Source of the DNA: a virus
DNA: 36,624 bases
Strand: one strand, 5' to 3'
IMG/VR virus record: IMGVR_UViG_3300026521_000115
Coordinates: 1 to 36,624 of that record
This document shows, in pieces, positions 2 to 36,624 of the stretch. The position numbers and the translations under genes are program-made. Each line of letters opens with the position of its first letter. Position 1 is the first letter of the stretch. The notes beneath the pieces are model-generated. The model was not told the DNA's origin. It was given only the letters and a program-made list of their open reading frames with translations, and did no database searches.

Positions 2-859
2 GTTCTAGAACGGTTTAAAGAAGTTCATGGAGATAAATATGATTATTCAAAAGTTATTTATAAAGGAACTTCAACTAAAGTAGAAATCGTTTGTCCAGAA
101 CATGGAAGTTTTTTTCAAAAACCAAATGATCATTTTAATGGAGCCGGGTGTGCGAAATGTGCTGGTAATAATAAAAAAAATAATGCTCAAATTATAAAAG
201 AATTTAAAAAAATCCATAAAGATAAATACGAATATTCACAAGTTAAATATACCGGAATTAAAAAATACGTTTTTATAAAATGCAATAAATGTTTAAATGC
301 TTTTAAACAGACTCCAAATAATCATTTAATGGGTAATGGTTGTCCCAATTGCAATGGGAGATTTACAAAATCTTTGGAAGAAATTTTAAAAGATTTTAAA
401 AAAGTCCATTCTAATAAATATAATTATAGCAAAGTCCGGTATATAAATAACATTAATAAGGTAGAAATAATATGCTTAGAACATGGTTCCTTTTGGCAGG
501 AACCATATAATCATAAAAATGGGCATGGGTGTCCAAGATGTTCTGAATCCAAAGGCGAAAGAAAGGTTAGAGAATTTTTAGAAGAGAATAACATATCTTT
601 TAAACAAGAAGTTAAACTCTTTGAGAATTATAGATTTGATTTTTATCTAGAAGATTTAAATACTGTCATTGAGTACGATGGAAAACAACATTACGAACCG
701 GTAAAATTTTTTGGTGGTTTAGAAGGGTTCTTAAAAACTCAAGAACGGGATAAAATTAAAGAAGATTATTGTTTAAAAAATAATATAAGAATAATTCGAA
801 TTAAATATTCCGAAGATGTACCGGAAGTTTTAAAACCTTTGATAACTGGTAGTAACTAA
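2..859 (+). CDS. Zinc-ribbon-repeat homing endonuclease-like protein (5' truncated)
   Basis: The reading frame is open from the first bases of the window, so the start lies just upstream; comparison with the sister gene at 3728 suggests only about ten residues are missing. Three N-terminal modules of about 60 residues each contain a KYDYSKV-type strand, a CPEHG motif and a closing GC(P/A)xC pair. The second module has CNKC in place of CPEHG, so Cys and His alternate at the same site, as expected for a zinc ligand. The last ~110 residues carry RFDFYLEDLN followed by VIEYDGKQH, a PD-(D/E)XK or EDxHD-like nuclease signature with Asp, Glu-x-Asp and Lys intact. Free-standing phage endonucleases of this type usually promote their own spread. 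It lies directly upstream of the probable capsid gene. Confidence 0.8.
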   Translation, partial: VLERFKEVHGDKYDYSKVIYKGTSTKVEIVCPEHGSFFQKPNDHFNGAGCAKCAGNNKKNNAQIIKEFKKIHKDKYEYSQVKYTGIKKYVFIKCNKCLNAFKQTPNNHLMGNGCPNCNGRFTKSLEEILKDFKKVHSNKYNYSKVRYINNINKVEIICLEHGSFWQEPYNHKNGHGCPRCSESKGERKVREFLEENNISFKQEVKLFENYRFDFYLEDLNTVIEYDGKQHYEPVKFFGGLEGFLKTQERDKIKEDYCLKNNIRIIRIKYSEDVPEVLKPLITGSN

Positions 860-980: not shown

Positions 981-2534
981 ATGGCTAAATTAATTGATAA
1001 TTTAATTTTAGAAAACTATGATATGTTCACAAAAGATCACTCGAATCTTTTTGAAGAAGCGAAAACACCAGCTGAGATTATCTTTGATGACTCGTATTTC
1101 GATATGTATGTTTCGAGTCTTACTAAAGGTTTAGAAGAAAGTGTTGTTGCTAAAATTCTTCCAGTACTTGATCGCGAACGTAAAATGTTTATCGAGGAAA
1201 GTTCAGCTCTTTTAACTTCTCCAGAAGCTATCGCATATGCTGTAACTACTATTCCAATGCTTATTAACATCTATGCTGAACCACAACTTAGCAAGATCGT
1301 TACAACAGTTCCGACTGATATGCCAACTCTTTCTATTTCTAGAATTAAATGGGTATCTAAAGTAATTGATGAAAAAGGTGGAGTTACTGAGTACATGTTC
1401 CCAACTGCTACTTCAATGATTCGTCCAGATTTCAAACAATTCAAGGTTTCTCAATCTGCAAATCTTTATAGCGAACTTGGTATTGCTAAAGGTGATTTCC
1501 GTCTTTCTAAAAGAAATTTCAAAGTTGTAAGTATTGATGTTGTTGTTGATGATGGTGATACTACTACTGTTGAGAATGTTCCAGTAACTGCTATCGCAGG
1601 TGCTCGTGGAAACTTTACTGTAGATAATTTTACTGTTCCAGGTGTAACTGGTGGCGTTTATAAACTTCAAGGTTCTGTTGATTTCGAAAGTGGTAGTATT
1701 ACTTCTTCTGTAATTACTATTGAGCCAGGTGACAAAACTGTAACTGAAGATACTATTGAAATTAAATTTAGACTTTTTGGTAATGGTAATGGTCGTGGTG
1801 TTGTTAAATCAGCTCCAAAACAAGAAATCATTGATGTTAATGCAGATATCGAAGATTCTTTCGAAGTTGAAAATATTGAAGAAGTAATTCAAGATTGGTC
1901 TGCAATCTATAAACTTGATATCATTTCAGAGCTTAAAAACTTTGTAAAAGGTCAGATTAAACTGAACCGTGATTTCGAGATTGCTGAATTACTTGAATCT
2001 AATATTCCTTTTGCTATGAGTATTGGTCAATATAAAGAAGTAGACTTCTCAAGATTTGGATCTGCTGATGGTTTCAAACCTTCAAACATCCAAGATATCT
2101 TCAAAAATATTGTTCCTACAATTATGTCTCTAGTAGAGAAAATGCGTAAAACGAACAATATGGAAGTTCAATATCTTGCTTGTGGTGTTGATGTTGCTGT
2201 AGTACTTAAATCTCTTCAAGAGTTTGCTGTATCTATGGAAAAAATGAATGGTAACTATTCTGTTCAAGGTGGAGTTCAATCAGGTTTCAATAAACTTGAA
2301 ATCGTTGAGTCTTATGCAATTGCTGATGATCTAATGCACTTAGTTCTTACTGCACCTGCTACTAATCAAAGTTCACTTGTGGAAGTACTATTCAAACCAC
2401 TATATATTATTACTGAAACTACTAATAGTATCAAACGTACATTTATTAAATCAAGAACTTGGATTGGTATTGTTCGTCAAGAAGGTATTGGTACAATTCG
2501 TATTAAAAACTACGAAGGTTTCGTTAACGTATAA
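981..2534 (+). CDS. Probable major capsid protein (HK97-fold type)
   Basis: This 517-residue protein is likely the main shell subunit. It lies at the head end of the structural module, has its own leader and terminator, and ends with TWIGIVRQEGIGTIRI, a hydrophobic strand resembling the end of gp23-type capsid proteins. Codon choice differs from its neighbours, with many CTT, CGT, ATC and TTC codons, as expected for the most abundant virion protein. Residues 1-60 are acidic/helical and could be a scaffold-like or cleaved N-terminus. Residues ~185-270 are a Val/Thr/Gly-rich beta segment that may be an inserted surface domain. RBS AAGGAAAAAT precedes the ATG. The assignment rests on context, length and the C-terminal motif rather than a clear family signature. 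Another abundant head protein is the alternative. Confidence 0.7.
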   Translation: MAKLIDNLILENYDMFTKDHSNLFEEAKTPAEIIFDDSYFDMYVSSLTKGLEESVVAKILPVLDRERKMFIEESSALLTSPEAIAYAVTTIPMLINIYAEPQLSKIVTTVPTDMPTLSISRIKWVSKVIDEKGGVTEYMFPTATSMIRPDFKQFKVSQSANLYSELGIAKGDFRLSKRNFKVVSIDVVVDDGDTTTVENVPVTAIAGARGNFTVDNFTVPGVTGGVYKLQGSVDFESGSITSSVITIEPGDKTVTEDTIEIKFRLFGNGNGRGVVKSAPKQEIIDVNADIEDSFEVENIEEVIQDWSAIYKLDIISELKNFVKGQIKLNRDFEIAELLESNIPFAMSIGQYKEVDFSRFGSADGFKPSNIQDIFKNIVPTIMSLVEKMRKTNNMEVQYLACGVDVAVVLKSLQEFAVSMEKMNGNYSVQGGVQSGFNKLEIVESYAIADDLMHLVLTAPATNQSSLVEVLFKPLYIITETTNSIKRTFIKSRTWIGIVRQEGIGTIRIKNYEGFVNV

Positions 2535-2559
2535 TCCTTGATTATATAACCTTTAATTT

Positions 2560-2598
2560 ATTCTAGAAGCTTAGGCTTCTAGAATTTCCTGTCGTTAA
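2560..2598 (+). terminator. Stem-loop plus CCTGTCGTTAA element (copy 1)
   Basis: A perfect 11-bp stem (ATTCTAGAAGC, loop TTAG) at 2560-2585 lies 25 nt after the capsid stop. It is followed by TT and CCTGTCGTTAA at 2588-2598. The usual run of T is replaced by this sequence, which recurs after four other hairpins in the window. It probably ends or processes the capsid transcript. Confidence 0.75.
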
Positions 2599-2643
2599 TT
2601 TCAGGACTAGTTCGGATAGATATTTTTTTAGAAAGGAATAACT

Positions 2644-3735
2644 ATGGCTAAAAAATTAACCAAAAAAGAAGTTCTTGAACAATTTAAAAAAGTCCATAAA
2701 GATAAATACGATTATAGTAAAGTCCATTATATAAATACTACTACTAAAGTAAAAATAATATGTCCAAAACATGGTGAGTTTATGCAAACTCCAATTATGC
2801 ATAAATCTAAACAAGGATGTCCAAAATGTTCAAATACCTTTAAATATAATATAGAATCTTTTTTAGAAACATTATATTATAAATATCCAGAATATTCAAA
2901 ATACGATTTTTCAAAATTTATATATAAAAATATGTTTGTTAAGGGAATTGTAATTTGTCCGGAACATGGAGAATTTTTGAGAACCCCAAACGATTTATTA
3001 CATACGAATAATAAATGTCCAACCTGTTTTAAGAATTTTCAAAAAAAAGGTCTAAATAAAAAATCAATTTATGAACATATAGAAGATTTTAAAAAAGTTC
3101 ATTCGAATAAATATGAATATTTATTCGAGGATACTTTAAAAATTATCTGTCCGGAACATGGAGAATTTATTCAAAAAATAAATTCTCATAAAAATGGACA
3201 TGGTTGTCCTAAATGCGCAAGTAATTTAATAAAAGCTCCTAGAAAAATAATAATAGACCATATTAAAGATTTTAAAAATGTTCATCTTGATAAATATTCG
3301 TATATTATTGATTTTAATAATAATTTAAAAGCTAAAGATAAAATAAAAATTATTTGTCCAGAACATGGAGAATTTATTCAAGAAATAAATTCTCATAAAA
3401 ATGGACATGGTTGTCCAAGATGCTCTGAATCCAAAGGTGAAAGAAGAGTTAGAGAATTTCTAGAATCTAATAATATTAACTATTCTCAAGAAGTTAAATT
3501 ATTTGATAAATATAGATTTGATTTTTATCTAGAAGAACTTAACACTGTCATCGAGTACGATGGAAAACAACATTTTGAACCAGTAAATCATTTTGGTGGT
3601 TTAGAAGGATTAAAGAAGACTCAAGAACGGGATAAAATTAAAGAAGATTATTGTTTAAAAAACGATATAAGAATAATTCGAATAGGGTATTTTGAAGACG
3701 TTGAAGAAGTTCTAGAAGGAATTTTAAATGCCTAA
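2644..3735 (+). CDS. Homing endonuclease-like protein with four zinc-ribbon modules
   Basis: This 363-residue protein has four N-terminal repeats of ~60 residues, each with an FKKVHxxKY(D/E)Y start, ICP(K/E)HGEF and a closing CPxC pair. The second repeat is the most diverged (CPTC, LLHTNNKC). The C-terminal nuclease part starts at SESKGERRVREFLES and carries Asp293, Glu304, Asp306 and Lys308 in a PD-(D/E)XK-like arrangement. The ATG at 2644 has the RBS GAAAGGAATA. The stop overlaps the start of the next endonuclease by 8 nt. By analogy with other free-standing phage endonucleases, the repeats probably read the DNA target and the nuclease part cuts it. Confidence 0.8.
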   Translation: MAKKLTKKEVLEQFKKVHKDKYDYSKVHYINTTTKVKIICPKHGEFMQTPIMHKSKQGCPKCSNTFKYNIESFLETLYYKYPEYSKYDFSKFIYKNMFVKGIVICPEHGEFLRTPNDLLHTNNKCPTCFKNFQKKGLNKKSIYEHIEDFKKVHSNKYEYLFEDTLKIICPEHGEFIQKINSHKNGHGCPKCASNLIKAPRKIIIDHIKDFKNVHLDKYSYIIDFNNNLKAKDKIKIICPEHGEFIQEINSHKNGHGCPRCSESKGERRVREFLESNNINYSQEVKLFDKYRFDFYLEELNTVIEYDGKQHFEPVNHFGGLEGLKKTQERDKIKEDYCLKNDIRIIRIGYFEDVEEVLEGILNA

Positions 3736-4660
3736 AAAATTAACTCAAGAAGAAGTTATAAAAAGATTTAAAGAAGTTCATGGGAATAAATATGATTATA
3801 GTAAGGTTCTGTATAAAAATACCTCTACCAATGTTATTATAATTTGCTTGGAACATGGAGAATTTTTACAAAAACCAAGAGAACATTTATCTAAATCTGG
3901 TTGTCAAAAATGTTTTAAAAAGAATTTAAAAATATCCAAGAATAAATTATTAGAACAATTTAAAATCGTCCATAATAATAAGTACGATTATAGTAAAGTT
4001 CAATATTTTAGATCGGATGAAAAAATAGAAATAGTATGCCCAAAACATGGAAGCTTTTGGCAACTTCCTTGGTCCCATAAAAAAGGAGCTGGTTGTCCTA
4101 TTTGCGCTAATATAAAAAATAAAGGTAATTTATCAAACACTTTACAATATATTAATAAAGCTAAAATTATACATAATAATAAATACGATTATTCAAAAAC
4201 TAATTATAAGCACAGTATGAAAAATATAGAAATAATTTGTCCGAAACATGGAAGTTTTTGGCAACTTCCAAATAATCACTTAAGTTTGAAAACTGGATGT
4301 CCAAAATGTGCTCAAGAAAGTTCCGAATCTAAAGGTGAAAGAAAAGTTCGAGAATTTCTAGAATCTAATAATATCAAATATTCCCAAGAGGTTAAACTAT
4401 TCGATAATTATAGATTTGATTTTTATCTAGAAGATTTAAATACAGTTATTGAGTACGATGGAAAACAGCATTTTGAACCAGTTGAATATTTTGGTGGTTT
4501 AGAAGGATTAAAGAAGACTCAAGAACGGGATAAAATTAAAGAAGATTATTGTTTAAAAAACGATATAAGAATAATTCGAATTAAATATATAGATTTTAAT
4601 AAAATAGAAAAAATACTTTCCGGAACAATATACCATAATACATCCATAATATATCCATAA
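3728..4660 (+). CDS. Homing endonuclease-like protein with three zinc-ribbon modules
   Basis: This 310-residue paralogue of the preceding gene begins inside its last codons (ATGCCTAA overlap), so the two are translationally coupled. It has three zinc-ribbon repeats instead of four; the motifs are CLEHGEF/CQKC, CPKHGSF/CPIC and CPKHGSF/CPKC. The nuclease part keeps Asp231, Glu242, Asp244 and Lys246 and is nearly identical in sequence to those of the genes at 2 and 2644. The short C-terminal tail (TIYHNTSIIYP) is unique. The nuclease domains are much more alike than the repeats, which suggests domain shuffling or gene conversion between copies. Confidence 0.8.
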   Translation: MPKKLTQEEVIKRFKEVHGNKYDYSKVLYKNTSTNVIIICLEHGEFLQKPREHLSKSGCQKCFKKNLKISKNKLLEQFKIVHNNKYDYSKVQYFRSDEKIEIVCPKHGSFWQLPWSHKKGAGCPICANIKNKGNLSNTLQYINKAKIIHNNKYDYSKTNYKHSMKNIEIICPKHGSFWQLPNNHLSLKTGCPKCAQESSESKGERKVREFLESNNIKYSQEVKLFDNYRFDFYLEDLNTVIEYDGKQHFEPVEYFGGLEGLKKTQERDKIKEDYCLKNDIRIIRIKYIDFNKIEKILSGTIYHNTSIIYP

Positions 4661-4728
4661 TTTATCTAAGTCCGTAATTCCAGTTCAAATAGATATATTA
4701 AACATAATGAAGATCAAAGGAAATATAA
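4661..4728 (+). promoter_or_regulatory. Intergenic segment resembling the post-capsid leader
   Basis: At 4670-4699 the order GTCCGTAATTCCAG then GTTCAAATAGATATATT resembles 2591-2625 (GTCGTTAATTTCAG then GTTCGGATAGATATTTT), allowing a small gap. No hairpin precedes it here. It may be a decayed duplicate of the leader that originally followed the capsid gene. The RBS CAAAGGAAAT precedes the ATG at 4729. Confidence 0.35.
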
Positions 4729-5958
4729 ATGGCGAGAAAATTAAATATAGAATCGTTTTTAAATATTGTGATAAATTATTCTCAAACCTATAATGTTTCA
4801 TTTCTTTCTGAGGATGTTGAATTATGGTTTAATAATAATTATGAAAGTACTCGTACAAAAATCCCGTTCAAATGTGAAAAATGTAATTATAATTATACTA
4901 AATCTATAATTAATATTCGAAATGGTCAGGGTTGTCCTAAATGTGCTAAGCTAAATAAAAAACGTAGAACTAATAAAGAAATACAAAGCGAGCGTTTAAA
5001 AATGGAAGAAAATTTACATACCCCAATAAAAAACATTATGGAATTTTTATTAATTGATTTAAAAATTCCAGAAGAATATATCGAATTAAATAAATTTGGT
5101 AAATTAGATATAGTAATAAATATACCAAATAGACAAATGATAGGGATTAATATAATATCTCTTCGTAAAAATAGTTTTGGTAAAGAAATTCCTTATAGTC
5201 ATAAACATAAATATCGATTAAAAGCTGTGACAAATACGGATTTGGCCGAAATTAAAAATATAAATTTATTAAGTATTTTTGAAAATGAATTTGAAAACGA
5301 ATTCCAAAATAAAATTTGGAAGAGTATTATTATTAATAAACTCGGGATGAATTCGACTCGTTTATATGCTAGAAAAACTTATATTAAAGAAGTTCCGAAT
5401 AATTTGGCAAGAACCTTTTTAGAAGAAAATCATATGCAGCAAGCCGGAGCTATGGGAAGCGTAAAACTCGGATTATTTACTAAAGATACCCACGAATTAG
5501 TTTCATTAATGACTTTTGGAAAAGGTCGTTACAATAAAATGCCTGGTTTTGAAATGATAAGATATTGTAATAAAATTGGTTGTAGTGTTATTGGAGCAGC
5601 TAATAAATTATTTAAATATTTTATTAATAATTATTTAAGTGATGATCAAATAATAGTATCATATGCTAATAGAAAATATGCATATAGAAATAAAAATATT
5701 TATAAAACTTTGGGTTTTAAAGAAACGGCTATATCGGAACCCAATTATTTTTACTTTGAGGAAGAAAAATTAAATAAAAATTTTCCAGAAAGTTTAAAAA
5801 CTTTAAAATTATACTCAAGAGTTAATTTTCAAAAACATAAATTAAAAGATAAATTAAAAGTATTTGATCCAAAAGAAATAGAGATGATAAATATGTTTAA
5901 TAATGGTTATAGGAGTATTTGGGATCCAGGAAACTTTGTATATATTTTTAAAAAGTAA
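4729..5958 (+). CDS. Hef-like homing endonuclease, nuclease site degraded
   Basis: This 409-residue protein has one N-terminal zinc ribbon (Cys49/Cys52 and Cys69/Cys72) and a middle region matching Vsr-like nucleases of the phage Hef-like family. In that family, as I recall it, an LDIYIP strand is followed by IEFNGLYWHSE. Here Asp127 survives in GKLDIVI, but the glutamate position is Gly139 (IGINIIS) and the WHSE part is gone, so cleavage activity is doubtful. The C-terminal half (residues ~205-409) keeps the family blocks LYARK, ELVSLMTFGKGR, CSVIGAANKLFKYF, VSYANRKY and LGF. It lies between endonuclease genes and structural genes. Its remaining function may be DNA binding, or it may be a decaying element. 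Confidence 0.72.
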   Translation: MARKLNIESFLNIVINYSQTYNVSFLSEDVELWFNNNYESTRTKIPFKCEKCNYNYTKSIINIRNGQGCPKCAKLNKKRRTNKEIQSERLKMEENLHTPIKNIMEFLLIDLKIPEEYIELNKFGKLDIVINIPNRQMIGINIISLRKNSFGKEIPYSHKHKYRLKAVTNTDLAEIKNINLLSIFENEFENEFQNKIWKSIIINKLGMNSTRLYARKTYIKEVPNNLARTFLEENHMQQAGAMGSVKLGLFTKDTHELVSLMTFGKGRYNKMPGFEMIRYCNKIGCSVIGAANKLFKYFINNYLSDDQIIVSYANRKYAYRNKNIYKTLGFKETAISEPNYFYFEEEKLNKNFPESLKTLKLYSRVNFQKHKLKDKLKVFDPKEIEMINMFNNGYRSIWDPGNFVYIFKK

Positions 5959-5967
5959 AGTTCGAAC

Positions 5968-6002
5968 TAATAATTAGCATTGATGATCAATGTTAATTAT
6001 TA
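5968..6002 (+). terminator. Stem-loop after the Hef-like gene
   Basis: A 16-bp stem with one G-U pair (TAATAATTAGCATTGA, loop TGA) begins 9 nt after the stop. No CTGTCGTTAA and no T-run follow. The RBS of the next gene follows immediately, so this may be an mRNA end or a structure affecting translation. Confidence 0.55.
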
Positions 6003-6016
6003 AATAAAGGATTAAG

Positions 6017-6391
6017 ATGAATTTATATTTATCACCTGAAGTGATTCAGGAATTAAAAACAAATATTAATAGTAAATTATCTAATGGTACTTTTACTCTT
6101 AATTTTTATTCGAGTGTTGCCCCAACGGAAGAGCAAGCTAATGATATTACGACTGCTCCGACGGTTGGATTATTACATAGCCTTGAAATAGATTTAACTG
6201 ATGGTTCATTAACTGATGGAGAAATTAAATTTACTCCAGATAATAATGGTACGTGTATATGGGGATTATTTGGTAAAGATGATGAATACGTAATTTTCGA
6301 AAATATTTTGGATAGCGTTGTTTTAGCGGATACTGAATTTAATTCAGATCAAGAAAATACAGTTAGTGATATTAGCTGTGAATTAATATAA
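6017..6391 (+). CDS. Unknown 124-residue phage protein, probably structural
   Basis: I do not recognise this family. The protein is acidic and beta-rich, with a helical start (LSPEVIQELKTNINSKL) and later strands such as CIWGLFGKDDEYVIFENIL. There is no signal peptide or membrane segment. It has RBS AAAGGATTA and lies 12 nt upstream of the beta-propeller gene, so the two are probably co-transcribed. Position between capsid and tail genes suggests a small virion component or assembly factor, by context only. Confidence 0.55.
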   Translation: MNLYLSPEVIQELKTNINSKLSNGTFTLNFYSSVAPTEEQANDITTAPTVGLLHSLEIDLTDGSLTDGEIKFTPDNNGTCIWGLFGKDDEYVIFENILDSVVLADTEFNSDQENTVSDISCELI

Positions 6392-6403
6392 TTAGGAGAT
6401 AGA

Positions 6404-8161
6404 ATGTTTTTAACTAAAAAATTACAAAACTCTAGTTTTAAAGAGGTAATCTCTTTAGAAAATACATTTCCGGATTCTTTTACTGGAAATGGATTAACCG
6501 ATATTTTTTTACCAGATTTCGATAATCAGCGTATCACTGTATTAATGAATTTAAATCTGGAACTTTTAAATTCGATTAGAAAAAATATAAGTGGTTCGTT
6601 TCCAGCAGGAAGTATTAGGTATACAAATACTTTAATTTTTCCAGAAATTACTTATTTAGATGAAAATATAATTTTTAAAATTACCCAAGAATCATTTTTA
6701 AAAAATTATAATGTTGATGATCCAACAGATGAAAATATTATTAGAAATAATAATATCGAAATCGTTAATGATGCTCCAGAAGAAGCTTCCGAAATTAATG
6801 TTCTTGTTTCTGCTGTTTTTAAATCAGTCGATGAAGATGGTTCCGGAGAAATAGATTTAAGTAAATCTATAGTTATGGTTCCTGTTGATAATAAAAACTT
6901 TTATTTAACCGAAACCAAACCATTAGTTGGAGACATTATCAGCCCATTACGTATAAATAACTATACAAATACTATATCGTTATTTAGCAATGCTAATAAA
7001 AATAAAAAATTATTAAAAACTGCAGATTTTGGTAAATTAGTATATATAAAATCAAACGAGGTTGCAAATTCGGATAATTATGGATATTCTGTTGCAAAAT
7101 TTGAAAATTTTGTAGCTGTTGGGATTCCTAGAAAAGAGTTTGTAGATGAAGATGGTAATGTTATATCTAATGTTGGTGCCGTTTCGCTTATTAATTTAGA
7201 AACTAAAACCGAGGAAATTATTTTTCCATCTAATAAAAGTGCTGCCAGCGCTTTTGGAACATCTATAGATATGAACGATAAATATATTGTAACCGGTGCT
7301 CCAACTTCTAATGGAGCAGATGGTTCGGTATTTATTTATAAGTTAGATACCAAAGAAAAAATTACTCTAGTTCCAACGGATATTATTGTGGATAATCAAT
7401 TTGGATATGATGTAAAACTATCTGATAATATTTTAATTGTTGGAGCACCTGCGAAAAATAATAAAGTATATTTATACGATTTAACAAGTCCTGACAATAA
7501 TTATAACGAGGTTATAATTACTCCGTCAGATGGACTTACTACTGGTTGGTTTGGTTGTTCGGTAGATGTTTATGAAAATATGGTTTTAATTGGAGCATAT
7601 CGATCTGAAGGGGATTATGGTTCAATGTATTTATACGACTTATCTAACTCAGACGATAACTATCAAGAAATTCAAATAAAAGCATCGGATGGAGAAAACG
7701 ACGACTATTTCGGAAGACATGTTTGTATAAATTCTAAATATGTTATTGGTTCTGCGTATGGAGCAGACGAAATATCGTCTGCTACTGGTTCTGTTTACGG
7801 ATACGACCGAACTAACGATTTAAAAGAATTTAAAATATTACCAGAGAATATTGGAGAATATGGTTCTGATTATTTTGGATCGTCTCTTTCTTTAAATAAA
7901 TTTAATAATAAATTAGCTATTGGTACAAAACTTTCGGATCTTAGTGGGTATACTGATAATGGAGATGTATATATATTTGATTTGGACAGCGATTCAGAAA
8001 CAAATTACAACCAATTGTATATTAAACCACCTATTAAAGAATCTACTATTTATTTTGGAAGTGCTCTTTCTTTTTATAAAAATGAATTGGCAATAGGAGA
8101 ATATTGTAATAACGATATTGAAAATGATTCTGGAGCAATATATATTTATAAGGATAATTAA
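6404..8161 (+). CDS. FG-GAP seven-bladed beta-propeller protein
   Basis: This 585-residue protein has a C-terminal region (~220-585) built from seven repeats of the FG-GAP/integrin-alpha type. Each starts with a (Y/F)G motif, at residues 226, 284, 333, 383, 436, 491 and 551, and continues to an I(V)GAP-like turn and a G(S/D)VYIYDL strand, as in IVTGAPTSNGADGSVFIYKL. The seven near-regular units (49-60 residues) fit one closed propeller. Residues 1-200 are a separate N-terminal region, possibly for virion attachment. DEDGSGEIDLSK at 143-154 resembles a calcium loop but lacks the final acidic ligand. The lack of a signal peptide and its place in the structural operon suggest a virion-borne binding protein. 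RBS TAGGAGATAG precedes the ATG. Confidence 0.72.
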   Translation: MFLTKKLQNSSFKEVISLENTFPDSFTGNGLTDIFLPDFDNQRITVLMNLNLELLNSIRKNISGSFPAGSIRYTNTLIFPEITYLDENIIFKITQESFLKNYNVDDPTDENIIRNNNIEIVNDAPEEASEINVLVSAVFKSVDEDGSGEIDLSKSIVMVPVDNKNFYLTETKPLVGDIISPLRINNYTNTISLFSNANKNKKLLKTADFGKLVYIKSNEVANSDNYGYSVAKFENFVAVGIPRKEFVDEDGNVISNVGAVSLINLETKTEEIIFPSNKSAASAFGTSIDMNDKYIVTGAPTSNGADGSVFIYKLDTKEKITLVPTDIIVDNQFGYDVKLSDNILIVGAPAKNNKVYLYDLTSPDNNYNEVIITPSDGLTTGWFGCSVDVYENMVLIGAYRSEGDYGSMYLYDLSNSDDNYQEIQIKASDGENDDYFGRHVCINSKYVIGSAYGADEISSATGSVYGYDRTNDLKEFKILPENIGEYGSDYFGSSLSLNKFNNKLAIGTKLSDLSGYTDNGDVYIFDLDSDSETNYNQLYIKPPIKESTIYFGSALSFYKNELAIGEYCNNDIENDSGAIYIYKDN

Positions 8162-8163
8162 AA

Positions 8164-8520
8164 ATGTATAATTTAATTAATAATTCTGGGATGGTTATAA
8201 CCATCCCAGATTGGCAAAAAATATATTATAAAGATTTAACCTTAATTGGTAAAAAAACAATGGATTGGAATGAACCATTGGTACAGAATTTTATAATACT
8301 TCTTGATCGTATAGAACGTTTAGAAAATAAATTAAAAGTTCCAGATATCGAAACTTCTGAAACTATTGGATTATTTGATTTCTCAGCTAAAAAAATAGAT
8401 TATCTTTATGGTACAGAAACTTCTGAAACTATTGGATTATTTGATTTCTCAGCTAAAAAAATAGATTATCTTTATGGTACAGAAACTTCTGAAACTATTG
8501 GATTATTTGATTATAACTAA
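8164..8520 (+). CDS. Small protein with a WNEP-QNF head and 22-residue tandem repeats
   Basis: This 118-residue protein has two parts. Residues 1-58 form a head with YKDLTLIG, WNEP, QNFI and LDRIERLENKL, the same pattern as the 61-residue protein at 20236, so the two are paralogues. The rest is 2.5 copies of a 22-residue unit (ETSETIGLFDF then SAKKIDYLYGT). It starts 2 nt after the propeller stop. The QNF-to-LEN part reads as a short helix suited to oligomerisation. I infer a small virion or fibre-attachment part; no known function is visible. Confidence 0.6.
   Translation: MYNLINNSGMVITIPDWQKIYYKDLTLIGKKTMDWNEPLVQNFIILLDRIERLENKLKVPDIETSETIGLFDFSAKKIDYLYGTETSETIGLFDFSAKKIDYLYGTETSETIGLFDYN
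8350..8511 (+). repeat. Perfect 66-bp tandem repeat (2.5 copies)
   Basis: Copies lie at 8350-8415 and 8416-8481, with a partial third at 8482-8511. They are identical at the DNA level and in frame (22 codons). Identity at silent sites points to recent duplication or continuing slippage. Confidence 0.9.
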
Positions 8521-8592: not shown

Positions 8593-8668
8593 GCTGGATT
8601 AGCTCAGTTGTTAGAGCACTTTCTTGGTAGGGAAGAGGCCAACGGTTAGAATCCGTTATCCAGCACCA
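8593..8668 (+). tRNA. tRNA-Thr (anticodon GGT)
   Basis: A full cloverleaf is visible: acceptor GCTGGAT/ATCCAGC, D-stem GCTC/GAGC, anticodon stem CTTTC/GGAAG with one wobble, loop TTGGTAG giving anticodon GGT, T-stem AACGG/CCGTT and an encoded 3' CCA. The T-loop is TTAGAAT, with A at position 56 where C is near-universal. The D-loop AGTTGTTA has T at position 19 where G is usual. The usual G19-C56 contact is therefore replaced by a possible U-A pair, which suggests the tRNA still folds and works. It reads ACC and ACU codons. Confidence 0.9.
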
Positions 8669-8673
8669 TATAC

Positions 8674-8756
8674 GGATCCTTACCTGAGCGGTTAAAGGAG
8701 CGGGTTGCTAACTCGTCTAGGTAAAACTAGCGTCAGTTCGAATCTGACAGGATCCA
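8674..8756 (+). tRNA. tRNA-Ser (anticodon GCT)
   Basis: The acceptor is GGATCCT/AGGATCC, the short D-stem CCT/AGG, and the anticodon stem GCGGG/CTCGT with loop TTGCTAA giving anticodon GCT for AGC/AGU codons. The long variable arm CTAG-GTAAAA-CTAG is typical of serine tRNAs. The T-arm GTCAG TTCGAAT CTGAC is perfect. No CCA is encoded. The base after the acceptor is A, whereas bacterial serine tRNAs normally have G73. Confidence 0.88.
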
Positions 8757-8760
8757 AATT

Positions 8761-8838
8761 AAAGAAGAAATACATGTTTAATTATAGAGGTAAGGTTTTT
8801 GGTACCAATATTCGGGTTCGAATCCCTCTACTTCTTTC
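8761..8838 (+). pseudogene. Degenerate tRNA-like sequence (possibly Gln, TTG)
   Basis: The segment has the length of a tRNA, a 7-bp end stem AAAGAAG/CTTCTTT (8761-8767/8831-8837) and a textbook GGG TTCGAAT CCC T-loop core. The middle, TAAGGTTTTTGGTACC, resembles the D-loop end and anticodon loop of a glutamine tRNA. However, I can pair only three base pairs of the T-stem and three of the anticodon stem, and find no D-stem. This looks like a tRNA remnant. A non-canonical tRNA cannot be excluded. Confidence 0.4.
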
Positions 8839-9775: not shown

Positions 9776-9905
9776 AATAACTATTGATAGTTAACTATGG
9801 ACAGTATAGTGTGTATAGATAACTATACTACTATTAGTACCATCAACTAAAGATACCACGTACTATCAATAGTTAACTATCAATAGTTAACTATCAATAG
9901 TTATT
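9776..9905 (+). repeat. Iteron and inverted-repeat island A
   Basis: In this gene-free region, 9776-9798 and 9883-9905 form a perfect 23-bp inverted repeat. Its right side contains three exact tandem copies of ACTATCAATAGTTA (9862-9875, 9876-9889, 9890-9903). Between the arms are two smaller stems, AGTATAG/CTATACT (9803-9809/9823-9829) and TAGTAC/GTACTA (9835-9840/9860-9865), so the whole can fold into a cloverleaf-like form. Candidate operator array, replication origin or leader RNA for the NTPase gene at 9964. The related island B lies at 33490-33763. Confidence 0.8.
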
Positions 9906-9963: not shown

Positions 9964-10551
9964 TTGGAATTAAAAAAACATATTATAATTAATTTATTTG
10001 CTGGACCAGGTTCTGGAAAAAGTACCGCGGCCGCTGGCTTATTCAATTATTTTAAAAAGAAAGGTTATAATTGCGAATTAGCCCCAGAAGTAGCAAAAGA
10101 TTTAACTTATTCTAAATCAAGAGCTATTAATAATCAATTTTTTGTAAGCGCTTCTCAGTATCAAGAAATATTTAAAGTACTTGATTACTGGGATAATATT
10201 GGTAAAAAAGGAATTATTATAATGGATAGTCCCATTATAATTGGGTTGGCTTTTTATGAATTTAGTACTGGAGTATTTGATAAATCTTTAAAAGATATGG
10301 TATTTTCTAAATTCTTACCAGAATTAAATAAAGATTTTATATTTAAAAATATAAATATTTTTTTAGATAATACCAATATATCTTATAATCCCGTTGGTAG
10401 AAATGAAACCGAATTAGAATCTAAAGATATAAATTTTATGATTAAAAATTTATTAAAGAATAATGAAATACATTATAAAAAGATAGACAGTATCAATTCA
10501 AAAAGTATTAATAAATATTGTCTTAATAAAGTAAAAAAGTTTTTAAAATGA
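9964..10551 (+). CDS. P-loop NTPase (AAA_28/NadR-like phage kinase family)
   Basis: This 195-residue protein has a Walker A motif GPGSGKST (residues 14-21), PEVAKDL at 41-47, a Walker B-like strand GIIIMDSP ending at Asp88, and a late YNPVGRNETE block with Arg146, a likely lid arginine. This order matches small phage ATP-binding proteins related to NadR-type nucleotide kinases. The substrate is not clear from sequence. Translation starts at TTG 9964, 4 nt after AAGGAGAA, and the stop overlaps the next start (ATGA). Its placement after iteron island A suggests separate regulation from the genes upstream. Confidence 0.75.
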   Translation: MELKKHIIINLFAGPGSGKSTAAAGLFNYFKKKGYNCELAPEVAKDLTYSKSRAINNQFFVSASQYQEIFKVLDYWDNIGKKGIIIMDSPIIIGLAFYEFSTGVFDKSLKDMVFSKFLPELNKDFIFKNINIFLDNTNISYNPVGRNETELESKDINFMIKNLLKNNEIHYKKIDSINSKSINKYCLNKVKKFLK

Positions 10552-20421: not shown

Positions 20422-20464
20422 AAATAACCAGTGGTATATACCACTGGTTATTTCCTGTCGTTAA
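20422..20464 (+). terminator. Stem-loop plus CCTGTCGTTAA element (copy 4)
   Basis: A perfect 15-bp stem (AAATAACCAGTGGTA, 2-nt loop) spans 20422-20453 and is followed directly by CCTGTCGTTAA (20454-20464). This is the longest perfect stem of the five. The stop codon of the preceding gene (20419-20421) lies immediately before it. Confidence 0.8.
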
Positions 20465-20497
20465 ACTAAATATAAGATATAATACAAAAGGATTAAA

Positions 20498-31280: not shown

Positions 31281-33422
31281 ATGGCTATTACTAAAATTAG
31301 ACAATATGGTACAAGAACCGTACCATTGTTAAAAGATCGTGTTTCGTATGGAGACATCGTTAACGATACTAGTATAGGTGGTACAAGTGTTCCGGCATCT
31401 GCTGAAACAGTTAAAACTTTAAAAACTGAGTTAGACGTTGAAATCGCAGATAGAGTTCAACAAGGTATTGATTTAGTCGATGGAGCTAGTACCAATGGTA
31501 ATACAATGGGAAAACTTGAAGTACTTGTTGGTACAACTGCAGAAGCTAACGCAGAAGCATTGGCTAAAGAAATCGAAGATAGAAATGCTGCTATTCAAGT
31601 AGAGACTGATAGAGCAGTTGCTGCCGAAGGTGTTGTACAAGCTAATCTTGATAAAGAAGTAGCTGATAGAGTTTCAGCTGTAGACTCTCTTAATAGTTCA
31701 TTAACTGCTGCTATAACAGCTGAAACAGATAGAGCAGTAGCTGCTGAAACAATCAATAAAGATGCGATAACTATTCTTAATAGTGATTCAAGTGTTTCTG
31801 GTTCTGTAGACGCAAAAATTGCTGTAGAGTCTGCTCGTGCTATTGCAGAAGAGCAAAGAATCGAAGCAGAACTTATAGAAGAAATTGAAATTCGTACCGA
31901 AGGTGTAGCTCTTAAAAGTTATACTGATGATGCGGTAGCTGCTGAAAAAGCTCGTGCTGAAGCGGTAGAAGCTTCAAATTTAACTGCTATTAATAACGAA
32001 GTAAGTACAAGAACTTCTGAAATTGAAAGAGTTGATGTACGTATCGATGACCTTGGTACTGCTATGGCTGATAATAGATCGGTTGTAGATGCTGCTATCG
32101 CTACTGAAGCAAGTACTCGTAGTACTGCGGATACAGCACTTTCTGATCGTCTTAATGCTGTAGAAAGTTCTATTATTGGTGGAGTTGCTTGGAAGGGTTC
32201 TCTTGATGATATGGCGGCACTTGATGCTCTAGTAGAAGATGATTTAATTGCTGGTCAGGCTTACTATGTAGTAGCTGAAAAAGATGTTTTTGTAGTATTA
32301 GAAGGAACTCAAGGTGATTATATCCCAGAAGGTTTTGAAAATAAATCATTCCTAAAAATTGCTGATTTTAAAGAACTTAGTGGTCTAGTAACTGCTGAAA
32401 AAGCTCGTGCTTTAGCTGCGGAAGCTGCTTTAACAGCTGCTCTAGATAAAGAAGTTGCTGATAGAATTGCTGAAATTTCTAGAATCGAAGGTTTAGTAAA
32501 TACTGAGAAAGATCGTGCTTTAGCTGCGGAATTAGTTAATACTAATGCTATTGCTCAAACTATCGAAGATTATCAAACTGCTGATACTGCGGTAAGAGCC
32601 GAATTTGCTGCTGCTGATACGAGTTTAAATGACCGTATTACTACAGAAGTTGATTCACTTAATAATAGAATGGATTCTGCGAGTGAATCATTCGCTACAG
32701 CTCTTCAAGTAGAGACTGATAGAGCGACTACAGCAGAATTAGCTAATAAAGATGCTATCAGTATTCTTAATAGCGATGACACCATTTCTGGTTCTGTAGA
32801 TTTCAAAGTAAAAGTTGAGAAAGATCGTGCTTTAGCTGCTGAACAAGTTATCGCGGATGCTTTAGCTCAAGAACTTCTTGATCGTACTGCTGATGTAGAT
32901 GCTGAAGAAGATCGTGCTTTAGCTGCTGAACAAGTTATCGCGGATGCTTTAGCTCAAGAAGTTCTTGATCGTACTGCTGATGTAGATGCTGAAGAAGCTC
33001 GTGCAAAAAATGCAGAAGATGCTATCAATACGAAATTAGACGTTATTAACTCTGATAAAACGGTTGTTGGTTCTATTGCTAATGCTCAATTCGAAGCTCA
33101 GGTTTATGCTGACCATTGGATTCCAATGATGAAACTTGAAGGTATGGATGGTTCTTTAACTGTTGATGGAGACGATGTAACTGTTACATATGTTCCAATG
33201 ACTGATGGTATCATTTATGGTGAGGTTATCGTATATGATCCAAGTAATGGTGATGCAATTGCGGTAAACGTTAAATCAATCGCTGGAAATGTTATCACTC
33301 TTGATACTACTACAGAAAATGAATTTGATGGTTTTGCTTGTAAAGTACAGTATATGTTTAAAGAAGGTGACCAAGATGGTGCTGGAATGGGTGTAGCTGG
33401 TGAAGGTGGAGCTGGAGAATAA
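31281..33422 (+). CDS. Alanine-rich coiled-coil fibre, probably abundant
   Basis: In this 713-residue protein, the start (MAITKIRQYGTRTVPLLKDR) looks like a virion anchor. The body has many AEKARALAAE / ETDRAVAAE units of long coiled coil, broken by IIGGVAWKGSLDDMAALDAL and a small beta domain (~300-360). DRALAAEQVIADALAQE is in a perfect in-frame duplication. The C-terminus is a beta domain (~595-700) ending in a Gly-rich tail (GAGMGVAGEGGAGE). Codons are CTT/CGT/GCT-rich, unlike the neighbouring fibres but like the capsid gene, implying high expression. It could be a head fibre, whisker or tail fibre. It is followed by stem-loop copy 5. Confidence 0.65.
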   Translation: MAITKIRQYGTRTVPLLKDRVSYGDIVNDTSIGGTSVPASAETVKTLKTELDVEIADRVQQGIDLVDGASTNGNTMGKLEVLVGTTAEANAEALAKEIEDRNAAIQVETDRAVAAEGVVQANLDKEVADRVSAVDSLNSSLTAAITAETDRAVAAETINKDAITILNSDSSVSGSVDAKIAVESARAIAEEQRIEAELIEEIEIRTEGVALKSYTDDAVAAEKARAEAVEASNLTAINNEVSTRTSEIERVDVRIDDLGTAMADNRSVVDAAIATEASTRSTADTALSDRLNAVESSIIGGVAWKGSLDDMAALDALVEDDLIAGQAYYVVAEKDVFVVLEGTQGDYIPEGFENKSFLKIADFKELSGLVTAEKARALAAEAALTAALDKEVADRIAEISRIEGLVNTEKDRALAAELVNTNAIAQTIEDYQTADTAVRAEFAAADTSLNDRITTEVDSLNNRMDSASESFATALQVETDRATTAELANKDAISILNSDDTISGSVDFKVKVEKDRALAAEQVIADALAQELLDRTADVDAEEDRALAAEQVIADALAQEVLDRTADVDAEEARAKNAEDAINTKLDVINSDKTVVGSIANAQFEAQVYADHWIPMMKLEGMDGSLTVDGDDVTVTYVPMTDGIIYGEVIVYDPSNGDAIAVNVKSIAGNVITLDTTTENEFDGFACKVQYMFKEGDQDGAGMGVAGEGGAGE
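32823..32996 (+). repeat. 87-bp in-frame duplication
   Basis: Units at 32823-32909 and 32910-32996 encode 29 residues each (beginning DRALAAEQV). They differ at only a few bases (CTT to GTT in one codon and GAT to GCT at the last join). A recent duplication within the coiled coil. Confidence 0.85.
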
Positions 33423-33431
33423 TTTCTCTTT

Positions 33432-33474
33432 AATTTATCCTTAGCGTAAGCTAAGGATAAATTCCTGTCGTTAA
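33432..33474 (+). terminator. Stem-loop plus CCTGTCGTTAA element (copy 5)
   Basis: A perfect 14-bp stem (AATTTATCCTTAGC, loop GTAA) spans 33432-33463 and is followed directly by CCTGTCGTTAA at 33464-33474, 9 nt after the fibre stop. It marks the end of the fibre unit and the start of the gene-free island B. Confidence 0.8.
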
Positions 33475-33489
33475 ATTTTAGAAAATAAA

Positions 33490-33763
33490 CGGATAACTAT
33501 TGATAGTTAACTATCAGTACACACACTATGAATAGTTAACTATCAATAGTTATTCGTTTTATAAAATTCCTAGCTAACAGATTTTAAAATAAACTTAAAT
33601 TCTGTTCTTGGATCCCCTATTTACCGGTGCTATCAGTGTTTGAAAAATTAACTATTTCTTAAATTTTGGTTTTTAAAAATTTTTAAAAAACCAAATAACT
33701 AACATACGACACTTAGTTAACTATTCATAGTGTGTGTACTGATAGTTAACTATTAATAGTTAT
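33490..33763 (+). repeat. Inverted-repeat island B
   Basis: In this gene-free region, 33493-33542 and 33714-33763 are a 50-bp inverted repeat with 49/50 identity, 171 nt apart. Each arm also contains its own near-palindrome: 33490-33515 can instead pair with 33531-33556. The arms contain ATAGTTAACTAT and ACTATTGATAGT, the same words as island A. Inner stems lie at 33576-33587/33595-33606 (11/12) and 33665-33674/33686-33695 (perfect). Long-range and local pairing exclude each other, as in a cruciform or RNA switch. Operator, origin or mobile repeat are all possible. No coding frame was seen. Confidence 0.8.
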
Positions 33764-33833
33764 CTCTTAAAACCTATCATAAACTAAATTATTAAAAATT
33801 AACTAAATAATATAAATTAAAAAGGATTAAAAA

Positions 33834-36624
33834 ATGATGGTAGATCCAATTTTAGGTAAAGCAATTTGTGAAAAATTCACGGATATTGATAATACCTTAG
33901 ATCGAATAAAAAATGAAAATGTTTTGATAGATATCGAAACTGATAAAAATATAAATTTCATGTTAAATCATTTCAATAAATATGATTTGGAACAATTTAA
34001 AAATTTAATTGAAACTAAGAACTTAAAAAGCGATGAAGAATATATAATTTTTGAAGATGGTGTAAAAACGCTTACTTTTAAGTACGGTTTTTATCAACCA
34101 AATACTTTCGAATTGGGTCCAATTCAATTTTATAACGGAAGACGAATATCTTTTAAAACTCCTGATACTACTACTCAAGGAGCGGATTGGGGAATTTATT
34201 ACTTGGATGATAATTCCAAGGTCGAATTCAATTTAAATAAGGATGTTATAATTTCTTGGTATCCTGATGAATTTTTTACATCTCCTCAAGAAACGTTTTT
34301 TGTGGATAGGAAAATTTTTGGAAATAATGAAATTCCGGAAACCACCAGATTATTTGATTTAGAAAATATTATTTTATCGGTTCCAACTCCAGACACATAC
34401 GCAGTACATAGATTAAACTTATTTTTTAACACTATGCAAAATACTATGGAAAATATTGGAAATATTAAATATAATGCTATACTACAAGCGAAAGAAAATT
34501 CATTTGGTGAAAAATTTACCGAATTTCAAATAGCTAATAAACAATATATGGTTAATAAAGATAATGTAATTTTTTTAGTAAATGTTATAAATGATGATGG
34601 AACAATAGAGGAAATTAACGAAGAAATTGGTACTACCTTAAATACGGAAATAGGGAAAATAACAGTAAATAATTATTCATTATATTTTAATATGTCAATC
34701 TATGTTTATCAAGATGAGTTAATACCATATGGTAGATATTATCCAGATAATTCGTATTTTAATATAGAATTAGTAACTGAAATACCATTCGCTGAATTAA
34801 GTATACTGGATGGTATTAATTATAATATAGATACATTTAAAACTCCTAGTGACTCAGTACAAGATTTGAAAATTAAAAGAGTGTCCGAGGACATCCCTTT
34901 AAAACGAGATGGCGATGGATATAGATTAGATAACGGATCTGATTATAAAAATTTAAAGAAGAATACTATAGATATGTCTTATAATAGTAACTCTTCGGGA
35001 TCGCAGAGTGTTTTATTTGGAGAAGAACATACGGAAACGGGAAGTTTAAATAATGTTTTTGGATCTATTAATACTGTAGATGGTAACGAAAATACGGTTT
35101 TTGGAAAATATAATAAATTAACAAATGGCTATTTAAATACTATAATTGGTCAAAGCAATATTGCCGATGGCAATGATGGAAGATTAAAACAAAATTTAGC
35201 CAATGGTTATGAATTAGGGATATTTGGAAATTATAACACGGTGTATGGAAATCGGTCCTATGTTACCGGAGAATATAATTTAATTTCTGGAAATTATAAT
35301 GGAAGTACCACTAAAAATTCGGTAGTTATTGGTTATAATAATGTTGCTTTTAATAATGAGTTGGTATATATAGAATCCGTTGAATATGGCGACAAGGAAT
35401 TAATTGATGGAATATATTATCAATTAGCGACTGTAAAAATTATTTACGAAATTGATTTTGATAACGATGATATTGGTATATACGGTATTTATTCGGCCGA
35501 GACTAGAACTGCAAGTTATTCACCAAAGATATTTAAAATTTTAGACGTTAAATCCGGAACCGAGTTAGTTTTGGGATTACTTGGAGGGAATATAAATCCT
35601 TTCTGGGGCTTATCTTTCGAAACGAAAAATACCAATTATATTTTTGGTACTAATAATATAAGCAATGGAAATAATGCATTAACTTCTGGTTCTTCTAATA
35701 CCAATAATTCTGAATTATCTGCAATTATTGGAGAAAATAATATAAGTTCTAAAAATATTTTTTCTCCTGAAAATGATTTTACCGCAAGTAAATCAGAAGA
35801 CGATACCGATGAAAGTTTTGGATATACAAAAATAACTTTTACCAAACCAAATGCATCTAACAATTATAATAAAGATGAATATATATTTTGTAAATATAGA
35901 ATACCAGTTAGTTCAAAAACAGTGACAATACATATTAAAATATTGGAACAACTTACTTCGGAAAACAGTATTATAATGGAAATACCTTTTATAAGAGATA
36001 GAGAAATTATAAGTATATTTAAATGGTACAATGATTCAACCGATTTTAATAATTCTTCCTTTATTTTTGGCTCGGCTAATATATCAACATCTAATAATTC
36101 TTTAACAAGTGGTTATGGAAATATAAATAAAGGTGATTATTCTATAGTTTTTGGAAAAAGAAATATTTCCCAATCCAATTATCAATTATTAACCGGTAAA
36201 TATGGCAAATATAATTTAGACTATTCAAGTGATTTAATGTTTGGTGTTGGGGTAGGTAAATGTTTAGGTACAAGTATCGATAGAAAAAACGGTATTGAAG
36301 TTTATCTCGATGGTATGGTAATGGCTCCCGAATTAAATCTAGACCATTTTTTATATAATAATCCAAAAACATTAGTAACTTTAGAATATTTAAAATATTT
36401 TGCTGGGAATAATATAGATAATATAGAATCATTAAAAACAGATGTTGAATCTAATACTAATAATATAGAATCATTAAAAACAGATGTTGAATCTAATACT
36501 AATAATATAGAATCATTAAAAACAGATGTTGAATCTAATACTAATAATATAGAATCATTAAAAACAGATGTTGAATCTAATACTAATAATATAGAATCAT
36601 TAAAAACAGATGTTGAATCTAATA
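33834..36624 (+). CDS. Beta-roll and coiled-coil adhesin-like fibre (3' truncated)
   Basis: The frame opens at ATG 33834 (RBS AAAGGATTA; a second ATG follows directly) and stays open to the window end, 930 codons so far. Residues ~1-380 are a mixed N-terminal part. At ~390-505, ~600-640 and ~740-780 repeated NTVFG/NTVYG/NNVFG units form a left-handed beta-roll like the head of YadA-type trimeric adhesins. DLMFGVGVGKCLG, RKNGIEVYLDGMVMAPEL and LVTLEYLK (~800-855) form the block that usually precedes fibre ends. The visible C-terminus is a 14-residue coiled-coil repeat. A trimeric host-binding fibre is likely. Confidence 0.75.
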   Translation, partial: MMVDPILGKAICEKFTDIDNTLDRIKNENVLIDIETDKNINFMLNHFNKYDLEQFKNLIETKNLKSDEEYIIFEDGVKTLTFKYGFYQPNTFELGPIQFYNGRRISFKTPDTTTQGADWGIYYLDDNSKVEFNLNKDVIISWYPDEFFTSPQETFFVDRKIFGNNEIPETTRLFDLENIILSVPTPDTYAVHRLNLFFNTMQNTMENIGNIKYNAILQAKENSFGEKFTEFQIANKQYMVNKDNVIFLVNVINDDGTIEEINEEIGTTLNTEIGKITVNNYSLYFNMSIYVYQDELIPYGRYYPDNSYFNIELVTEIPFAELSILDGINYNIDTFKTPSDSVQDLKIKRVSEDIPLKRDGDGYRLDNGSDYKNLKKNTIDMSYNSNSSGSQSVLFGEEHTETGSLNNVFGSINTVDGNENTVFGKYNKLTNGYLNTIIGQSNIADGNDGRLKQNLANGYELGIFGNYNTVYGNRSYVTGEYNLISGNYNGSTTKNSVVIGYNNVAFNNELVYIESVEYGDKELIDGIYYQLATVKIIYEIDFDNDDIGIYGIYSAETRTASYSPKIFKILDVKSGTELVLGLLGGNINPFWGLSFETKNTNYIFGTNNISNGNNALTSGSSNTNNSELSAIIGENNISSKNIFSPENDFTASKSEDDTDESFGYTKITFTKPNASNNYNKDEYIFCKYRIPVSSKTVTIHIKILEQLTSENSIIMEIPFIRDREIISIFKWYNDSTDFNNSSFIFGSANISTSNNSLTSGYGNINKGDYSIVFGKRNISQSNYQLLTGKYGKYNLDYSSDLMFGVGVGKCLGTSIDRKNGIEVYLDGMVMAPELNLDHFLYNNPKTLVTLEYLKYFAGNNIDNIESLKTDVESNTNNIESLKTDVESNTNNIESLKTDVESNTNNIESLKTDVESNTNNIESLKTDVESN
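36417..36624 (+). repeat. 42-bp tandem repeat (5 copies to the window edge)
   Basis: Five exact in-frame copies start at 36417, 36459, 36501, 36543 and 36585 (the last cut by the edge; the first begins GAT instead of AAT). They encode NNIESLKTDVESNT, two heptads with Ile, Leu and Val at core spacing. The array extends beyond the window. Confidence 0.9.

What the first reader, a model, noticed from the sequence alone, without database searches (positions are those of the whole stretch)
33490..33763. 50-bp inverted repeat with alternative local folds (island B)
33493-33542 and 33714-33763 match as reverse complements at 49 of 50 positions, 171 nt apart in a gene-free region before the adhesin-like fibre gene. 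Each arm is itself nearly self-complementary, so local and long-range pairing compete. Near-perfect conservation of two arms in an A/T-rich phage implies active maintenance by function or by recombination. It could be an operator for a fibre switch, an invertible segment boundary, an origin, or a small mobile element.
Basis: partly seen in the sequence, partly recalled or inferred. Interest (0 to 1): 0.7.

Follow-up and report, generated by a model that had tools for sequence, protein, structure and literature searches.

The report
Shuffled palindromic repeats in a jumbo phage
The 50-base inverted repeat is one copy of a family of small, shuffling, palindrome-bounded DNA repeats scattered through the gaps between genes of an undescribed giant bacterial virus; it is not a switch for the nearby fibre gene, and such repeats are known from bacteria and mitochondria but I found none described in phages.

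Summary
The inverted repeat is real: 49/50 (50/51) complementary bases, arms 33492-33542 and 33714-33764. It is not a one-off. Each arm is a repeat unit, palindrome TAGTTAACTA + 17-nt spacer + palindrome. The arms flank a conserved ~140-bp core (33551-33690).

A second island lies at 9777-9905. About 8 intergenic islands per 100 kb occur in related phage contigs up to 167 kb. They belong to a jumbo myophage lineage with its own RNA polymerase. Islands sit between a terminator (hairpin + TTTTCCTGTCG) and the next promoter.

The inverted arrangement is not maintained. At the orthologous locus one relative (G005) has the core without the 50-bp repeat, and another (G009) has no island at all between the same terminator, promoter and fibre gene. 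In G004 the same arms are direct repeats.

Copies within a phage are nearly identical while orthologous copies are 75-92% alike. Spacers are flipped between orthologous islands. No Y1, tyrosine, serine or TnpB recombinase was found.

Best reading: mosaic palindromic interspersed elements, like bacterial BIMEs/REPINs or yeast mitochondrial GC clusters, spread and homogenised by recombination. A regulatory role upstream of promoters remains possible.

The parts
33432..33463 (+). terminator hairpin AATTTATCCTTAGC-GTAA-GCTAAGGATAAATT of the upstream transcription unit
   Evidence: perfect 14-bp stem (I9); one of 43 intergenic hairpin+CCTGTC terminators in the lineage
33461..33478 (+). terminator tail ATTCCTGTCGTTAAATTT
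   Evidence: TCCTGTC is in 43/43 intergenic hairpin-bearing sites; 45 of 50 sites with stems >=8 bp follow a same-strand gene end
33492..33542 (+). left arm: palindromes at 33504-33513 and 33533-33542 with spacer CAGTACACACACTATGA between them
   Evidence: the same unit occurs in other islands in either orientation
33551..33690 (+). conserved AT-rich core (about 140 bp), about five copies per phage
   Evidence: copies in G008, G004, G002, G001 (x4), G005, G007 (x4), G006
33694..33713 (+). module AATAACTAACATACGACACT, also found to the left of the core in G004 and G005
   Evidence: sequence
33714..33764 (+). right arm: same palindrome-spacer-palindrome unit, spacer in reverse orientation
33801..33817 (+). 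late-promoter-like AACTAAATAATATAAAT just downstream of the island
   Evidence: AACTAAAT is enriched upstream of transcription-unit starts, 25/193 vs 1/470 operon-internal genes; conserved in the island-less G009 and in distant G010
33834..36624 (+). downstream gene, beta-roll fibre/adhesin-like (start conserved in G009 as MLDPISSKLICDKF)
   Evidence: (sub-threshold LbR_Ice_bind)
9777..9905 (.). second island of the family (type 2, no core), upstream of the thymidylate-kinase-like gene 9964-10551
   Evidence: present at the same locus in G005 and G009
20422..20497 (+). island-free terminator-promoter spacer; the orthologous spacers in G005 and G009 carry a type 2 island

Best explanation
The feature is one member of a dispersed family of mosaic palindromic repeats in a jumbo myophage lineage. 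Each island is built from cassettes bounded by the 10-bp palindrome TAGTTAACTA: a 17-nt spacer unit, an ~60-nt 'ACCATCAACTAAAGAGACAAACG' unit, and a ~140-bp core. Islands sit in the spacer between the terminator of one transcription unit and the promoter of the next. Copies appear, disappear, merge and flip at the shared palindromes, and copies in one phage are kept alike by recombination. Because every bounding palindrome is its own reverse complement, a cassette can be joined in either orientation; the 50-bp inverted repeat arose because the two arms happen to carry the spacer in opposite orientations. SHOWN: family, cassette structure, location, presence/absence, inversion, within-phage homogenisation, no detectable member of four recombinase/transposase families. 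INFERRED: that spread occurs by phage recombination or replication template-switching at hairpin-forming palindromes rather than by a dedicated transposase, and that the elements are mainly selfish or tolerated rather than needed by the downstream gene.
For: Dispersed copies: 15 islands in 167-kb G001, 8 in G005, 9 in G007, 6 in G009. ATAGTTAACTAT (<=1 mismatch) is seen 19-29 times per record against 1-3 expected, and 2 vs 1.6 in the relative G010. Presence/absence at syntenic sites: gamma has a core island in W and G005, none in G009; epsilon has an island in G004, a 12-nt gap in G001; site 1 is empty in W and occupied in G005 and G009; a short palindrome lies in a G007 operon gap where G001 and G004 have 10-16 nt. 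Concerted evolution: four of five cores in G001+G005 are 100% identical over 131 nt, and W-phage cores 99.3-100%, while orthologous cores between phages are 75-92%. Inversion: the capsid-gene island has spacer CAGTACACACACTATGA in G001 and its reverse in G009; G004 epsilon arms are direct repeats. Location: terminator-to-promoter distance is 72-607 nt with islands, mostly 4-44 nt without, and mostly 9-30 nt in the essentially island-free G010. No Y1 transposase, TnpB, tyrosine or serine recombinase.
Against: Promoter motifs are much commoner beside islands (24/36 transcription-unit starts) than at unit starts without islands (24/112; p = 1e-6), and cores sit at all three large divergent junctions in G001 and G007, as a functional element might. 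No clean target-site duplication or mobilising enzyme was found. All contigs are metagenomic; some copies lie at contig ends.
Confidence: 0.63

Rival explanations
1. Regulatory element: the palindromes are operators or upstream activating sites for a phage-encoded DNA-binding protein that works with the phage's own multi-subunit RNA polymerase at many promoters.
For: 29 of 36 island-gene junctions of >=40 nt have a promoter motif between island and gene; ATAGATAT motifs lie mostly 10-24 nt and AACTAAA motifs mostly 33-64 nt from the island edge; the promoter association is significant; RNAP beta and beta' homologues are present.
Against: Orthologous promoters exist without the island (gamma in G009, site 1 and the capsid site in W). 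Islands also occur in operon gaps and inside a coding gene. Number, spacing and orientation of palindromes vary between orthologous islands.
Confidence: 0.2
2. The core is a replication origin (or replication enhancer), with several copies per genome.
For: Cores at all three main divergent junctions in G001 and G007; the cumulative GC-skew minimum lies at 51,183 in G001 and 44,895 in G007, at the alpha core in both; a 30-nt invariant AT-rich block.
Against: Skew and transcription direction are confounded. The W copy lies inside a long co-directional run and is missing in G009. Copy sites beyond the divergent junctions vary between phages.
Confidence: 0.08
3. Structured non-coding RNA, or CRISPR-repeat mimic (RNA anti-CRISPR), encoded by the core.
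For: A conserved core in an intergenic place; strong hairpins in W; a TTGAAA-like stretch noticed by eye.
Against: Consensus fold energy is only -3.7 kcal/mol with little covariation. Rfam gives no match at gathering scores; the low-scoring hits are eukaryotic miRNA hairpins produced by the palindromes. The G001-type core segment and the invariant block were not found in 84,980 species genomes. Core orientation to genes is not fixed.
Confidence: 0.05
4. Invertible segment or fibre phase switch: the arms recombine to flip the inner 171 nt and switch the fibre gene.
For: Near-perfect inverted arms in W and in G008; the G004 beta-locus core, at a contig end, is inverted relative to G001, G007 and G006.
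Against: No invertase or integrase found. The G005 orthologue keeps the same core orientation without the inverted repeat. G009 has the fibre gene with promoter but no island. The promoter-like motif of the fibre gene lies outside the inner segment (33801-33817).
Confidence: 0.03

Closest known systems
REP/BIME and REPIN elements of bacteria (PMC2817692, PMC3116915)
   Same: Short palindromic units in extragenic space, combined into mosaics with alternating orientation; doublets form long hairpins; sporadic distribution.
   Different: In a phage. No RAYT/Y1 transposase found. AT-rich palindrome TAGTTAACTA. Tens rather than hundreds of copies. Carries a ~140-bp core cassette.
Palindromic GC clusters of yeast mitochondrial DNA (PMC4478555)
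   Same: Palindromic elements with sporadic presence/absence in a compact genome; merger and shuffling of palindromic clusters.
   Different: AT-rich, in a jumbo phage genome, concentrated between terminators and promoters.
Prokaryotic MITEs, including Rickettsia palindromic elements (review PMC10969869, whose main text does not mention phages)
   Same: Small, non-coding, hairpin-forming, intergenic, occasionally in frame inside genes.
   Different: No clear target-site duplication and no parent transposon or transposase among the four families tested.

Membership tests
REP/BIME/REPIN | palindromic units in extragenic space, repeated in mosaic arrays | tested here: met
REP/BIME/REPIN | associated RAYT (Y1_Tnp, PF01797) in the genome | tested here: not met
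   0 of 8 records; the records may be incomplete genomes
REP/BIME/REPIN | high copy number (>100 per genome, PMC2817692) | tested here: not met
   15 islands in 167 kb, 8 in 114 kb
MITE | terminal inverted repeats | tested here: inconclusive
   islands often start and end with ATAACTATTRATAGTTAACTAT and its complement, but ends vary
MITE | target-site duplication | tested here: not met
   no clear duplication seen by eye at the epsilon, gamma and site 1 empty/occupied pairs; flanks are diverged, so weak
MITE | related autonomous element or transposase in the same genome | tested here: not met
   Pfam scan of 51 further G001 proteins shows none
Invertible segment / phase-variation switch | inverted repeats flanking the segment conserved at the locus | tested here: not met
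   absent in G005 and G009 orthologues
Invertible segment / phase-variation switch | site-specific recombinase | tested here: not met
Invertible segment / phase-variation switch | both orientations in the population | not testable with these tools
   no reads available
Structured ncRNA (Rfam) | covariation-supported conserved structure | tested here: not met
Origin of replication | replication initiates there | not testable with these tools
   only indirect GC-skew evidence at the alpha copy

The most novel reading that the evidence does not exclude
A jumbo phage lineage carries a modular cassette system: palindrome-bounded DNA cassettes that copy and shuffle between its promoter-upstream spacers without a transposase, homogenised within each phage. 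A core cassette is fixed at the divergent control regions as an origin or enhancer, so the phage rewires many promoters by recombination.
Probability: 0.2. Interest if true: 0.75.

Novelty: new variant of a known kind. Interest (0 to 1): 0.52.

Why it matters
Phage genomes are usually thought too compact to carry families of interspersed non-coding repeats. Here such a family occupies many of the larger intergenic gaps of a jumbo phage lineage, is shuffled and homogenised like REPs or mitochondrial GC clusters, and sits directly upstream of phage promoters. It gives a tractable case for how palindromic elements spread without a known transposase, and whether they alter transcription. It may also explain why metagenome assemblies of these phages break: several contigs end inside islands.

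Tried and rejected
Fibre switch or operator: rejected by the empty orthologous site in G009. Tyrosine or serine recombinase, IS200/IS605 (Y1) or TnpB mobility: no such genes found. Homing-endonuclease-linked spread: DUF723-like endonuclease genes are adjacent to islands somewhat more often (7/30 vs 62/536) but not significantly (p = 0.08). CRISPR-repeat mimic: no match to the G001-type core segment in species genomes, nor to the invariant core block. Conserved RNA: negligible covariation. CTGTCGTTAAA as part of the island: rejected, it is a general terminator tail. Similar DNA or protein in cultured phages: none found for the island, the sheath or one baseplate-region protein. Literature searches found no description in phages, within an open-access library only.

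Full report
NAMES. W is the window; G001, G002 and so on are related IMG/VR phage records given handles by the genome search. Greek letters name loci where a core-bearing island was found: gamma is the locus of this finding; alpha, beta, eta, zeta, delta and epsilon are other loci.

OBSERVATION. The inverted repeat is real and is the best in the window: 49/50, or 50/51 when extended by one base to 33492-33542 and 33714-33764. The intergenic region folds far better than shuffled sequence (z = -13.3). Each arm is palindrome TAGTTAACTA - 17-nt spacer - palindrome. The palindrome motif is strongly over-represented in the window (18 matches with up to one mismatch against 2.8 expected) and nearly all matches fall in two islands, 9787-9894 and 33503-33753.

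A DISPERSED FAMILY. Exact-pattern scans of IMG/VR with the palindromic repeat, the core and the spacer unit returned contigs from a few metagenomes. Searching those records with the island shows many copies each: 15 islands in G001 (167 kb), 8 in G005 (114 kb), 9 in G007 (130 kb), 6 in G009 (81 kb). Three islands lie inside coding genes. One of these, shared by G001 and G007, is read in frame at a place where the G004 orthologue has different residues.

THE PHAGE. Gene order shows that window 981-8520 corresponds to the end of G001, and window 9964-33422 to G005 in reverse. G009 joins the two in one contig, so I infer a genome of at least ~281 kb for the G001+G005 phage. The lineage has a contractile-tail sheath, T4-type terminase, multi-subunit RNA polymerase subunits, family-B DNA polymerase, ribonucleotide reductase, RecJ-like, dUTPase and actin-like genes. 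No cultured phage matched the sheath protein or one baseplate-region protein. G002, G004 and G008 come from one metagenome (3300026521), have window-like cores at 99-100% identity and do not overlap the window in gene content apart from the endonuclease family, so they are probably other pieces of the window's phage or of a sister phage (inference).

ANATOMY. The lineage has a recognisable terminator: a hairpin followed by TTTTCCTGTCG(TTAAA). Of 50 CTGTC sites preceded by a stem of at least 8 bp, 43 are intergenic and 45 follow a same-strand gene end. Two promoter-like motifs are enriched upstream of transcription-unit starts: ATAGATAT (38/193 vs 7/470 operon-internal genes) and AACTAAAT (25/193 vs 1/470). 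Islands lie between terminator and promoter. The distance from terminator tail to first promoter motif is 72-607 nt with an island and mostly 4-44 nt without; in the essentially island-free relative G010 it is mostly 9-30 nt. The window feature follows this plan exactly: terminator 33432-33463, tail 33461-33478, island 33492-33764, promoter-like motif 33801-33817, fibre gene 33834.

CASSETTES. Comparison of islands shows recurring units bounded by the palindrome: the CAGTACACACACTATGA spacer, the ACCATCAACTAAAGAGACAAACG... unit, the AATAACTAACATACGACACT module and the core. The spacer occurs in both orientations. At the island downstream of the major capsid gene the flanks are conserved between G001 and G009, but the spacer is reversed. 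In G004 epsilon both arms have the same orientation, giving direct repeats where the window has inverted ones. G008 alpha has the inverted arrangement like the window. So the inverted repeat is one outcome of cassette orientation, not a conserved structure.

PRESENCE AND ABSENCE. At the locus of the finding, G005 has the core but different arms. G009 has terminator, promoter AACTAAATAGTAATAAA and a fibre-gene start homologous to the window's (MLDPISSKLICDKF vs MMVDPILGKAICEKF), with no island. Other occupied/empty pairs are epsilon (G004 occupied, G001 12-nt gap), site 1 (G005 and G009 occupied, W empty), the capsid site (G001 and G009 occupied, W empty) and a G007 operon gap. The core at delta is present in G002 but missing in G001, G006 and G009, which have type 2 islands there.

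CONCERTED EVOLUTION. Four of the five cores in G001+G005 are identical over 131 nt. Window-phage cores are 99.3-100% identical. Orthologous cores between phages are 75-92% identical, while neighbouring genes can be 86-93% identical in DNA. The G001 eta copy keeps a left end shared with the G007 eta copy, but its middle is of the G001 type, as expected for a gene-conversion tract (interpretation).

MECHANISM. No Y1 transposase, TnpB-type, tyrosine or serine recombinase was detected in eight related records. I infer that movement and flipping come from recombination or template switching at hairpin-forming palindromes during phage replication. This step is not shown. A regulatory role is the main rival: promoter motifs are strongly associated with islands (24/36 vs 24/112, p = 1e-6), and motif distances from the island edge are not random-looking. 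However, orthologous promoter motifs are conserved without islands, and some islands occur where no promoter motif is seen. Cores occupy all three large divergent junctions in G001 and G007, and the GC-skew minimum falls at the alpha core in both. An origin or enhancer role for that copy is therefore open.

COMPARISON WITH KNOWN KINDS. The closest analogues are BIMEs/REPINs (PMC2817692, PMC3116915) and yeast mitochondrial GC clusters, described as undergoing merger and shuffling (PMC4478555). It works like these. It does not meet the BIME criterion of an associated RAYT, nor the MITE criteria of target duplication and related transposase, so I do not file it as a member of either. I found no report of such a family in phages, but the library is limited.

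LIMITS. All relatives are metagenomic contigs; G002 and G004 copies lie at contig ends. Gene calls are simple longest-ORF calls. Motif counts use hand-chosen patterns seen in the same data. Orthologous comparisons rest on three phage types.

Noticed in passing
window 2589, 12273, 20455, 33465; 43 intergenic sites across the window and relatives: Phage-wide terminator signature: perfect hairpin followed by TTTTCCTGTCG(TTAAA), on both strands at convergent junctions; also in the distant relative G010. Perhaps a termination or processing signal of the phage RNA polymerase.
   Followed up: partly
upstream of transcription units, e.g. window 33801-33817 and about 9928: Two promoter-like motif classes, ATAGATAT and GAACTAAAnnnTATAAA, in a jumbo phage that encodes its own RNA polymerase subunits.
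   Followed up: partly
window 2-859, 2644-3735, 3728-4660 (34 family members counted in window and relatives): A large paralogous family of DUF723/DUF4379 free-standing homing-endonuclease-like genes; association with islands not significant (p = 0.08).
   Followed up: partly
L048 7955-7994 (G001 107955-107994) and G007 105219-105255: A palindromic element inside a coding gene, read in frame (ELTIDSKLSIVNYQ), where the G004 orthologue has different residues.
   Followed up: partly
G001 51183, G007 44895: The cumulative GC-skew minimum falls at the alpha core between RecJ-like and RNAP-beta genes in both phages; possible main origin.
   Followed up: no
window 8593-8665 and 8674-8756: Two tRNA genes (Rfam); a tRNA-3'-like stretch follows at about 8800-8838.
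   Followed up: no
window 32808-32981: 87-nt tandem coding repeat (93% identical copies) in the coiled-coil-like protein upstream of the island.
   Followed up: no
G001 140019-143909: Ribonucleotide reductase large subunit with an intein bearing a LAGLIDADG domain; the G002, G006 and G009 orthologues are ~450 aa shorter.
   Followed up: no
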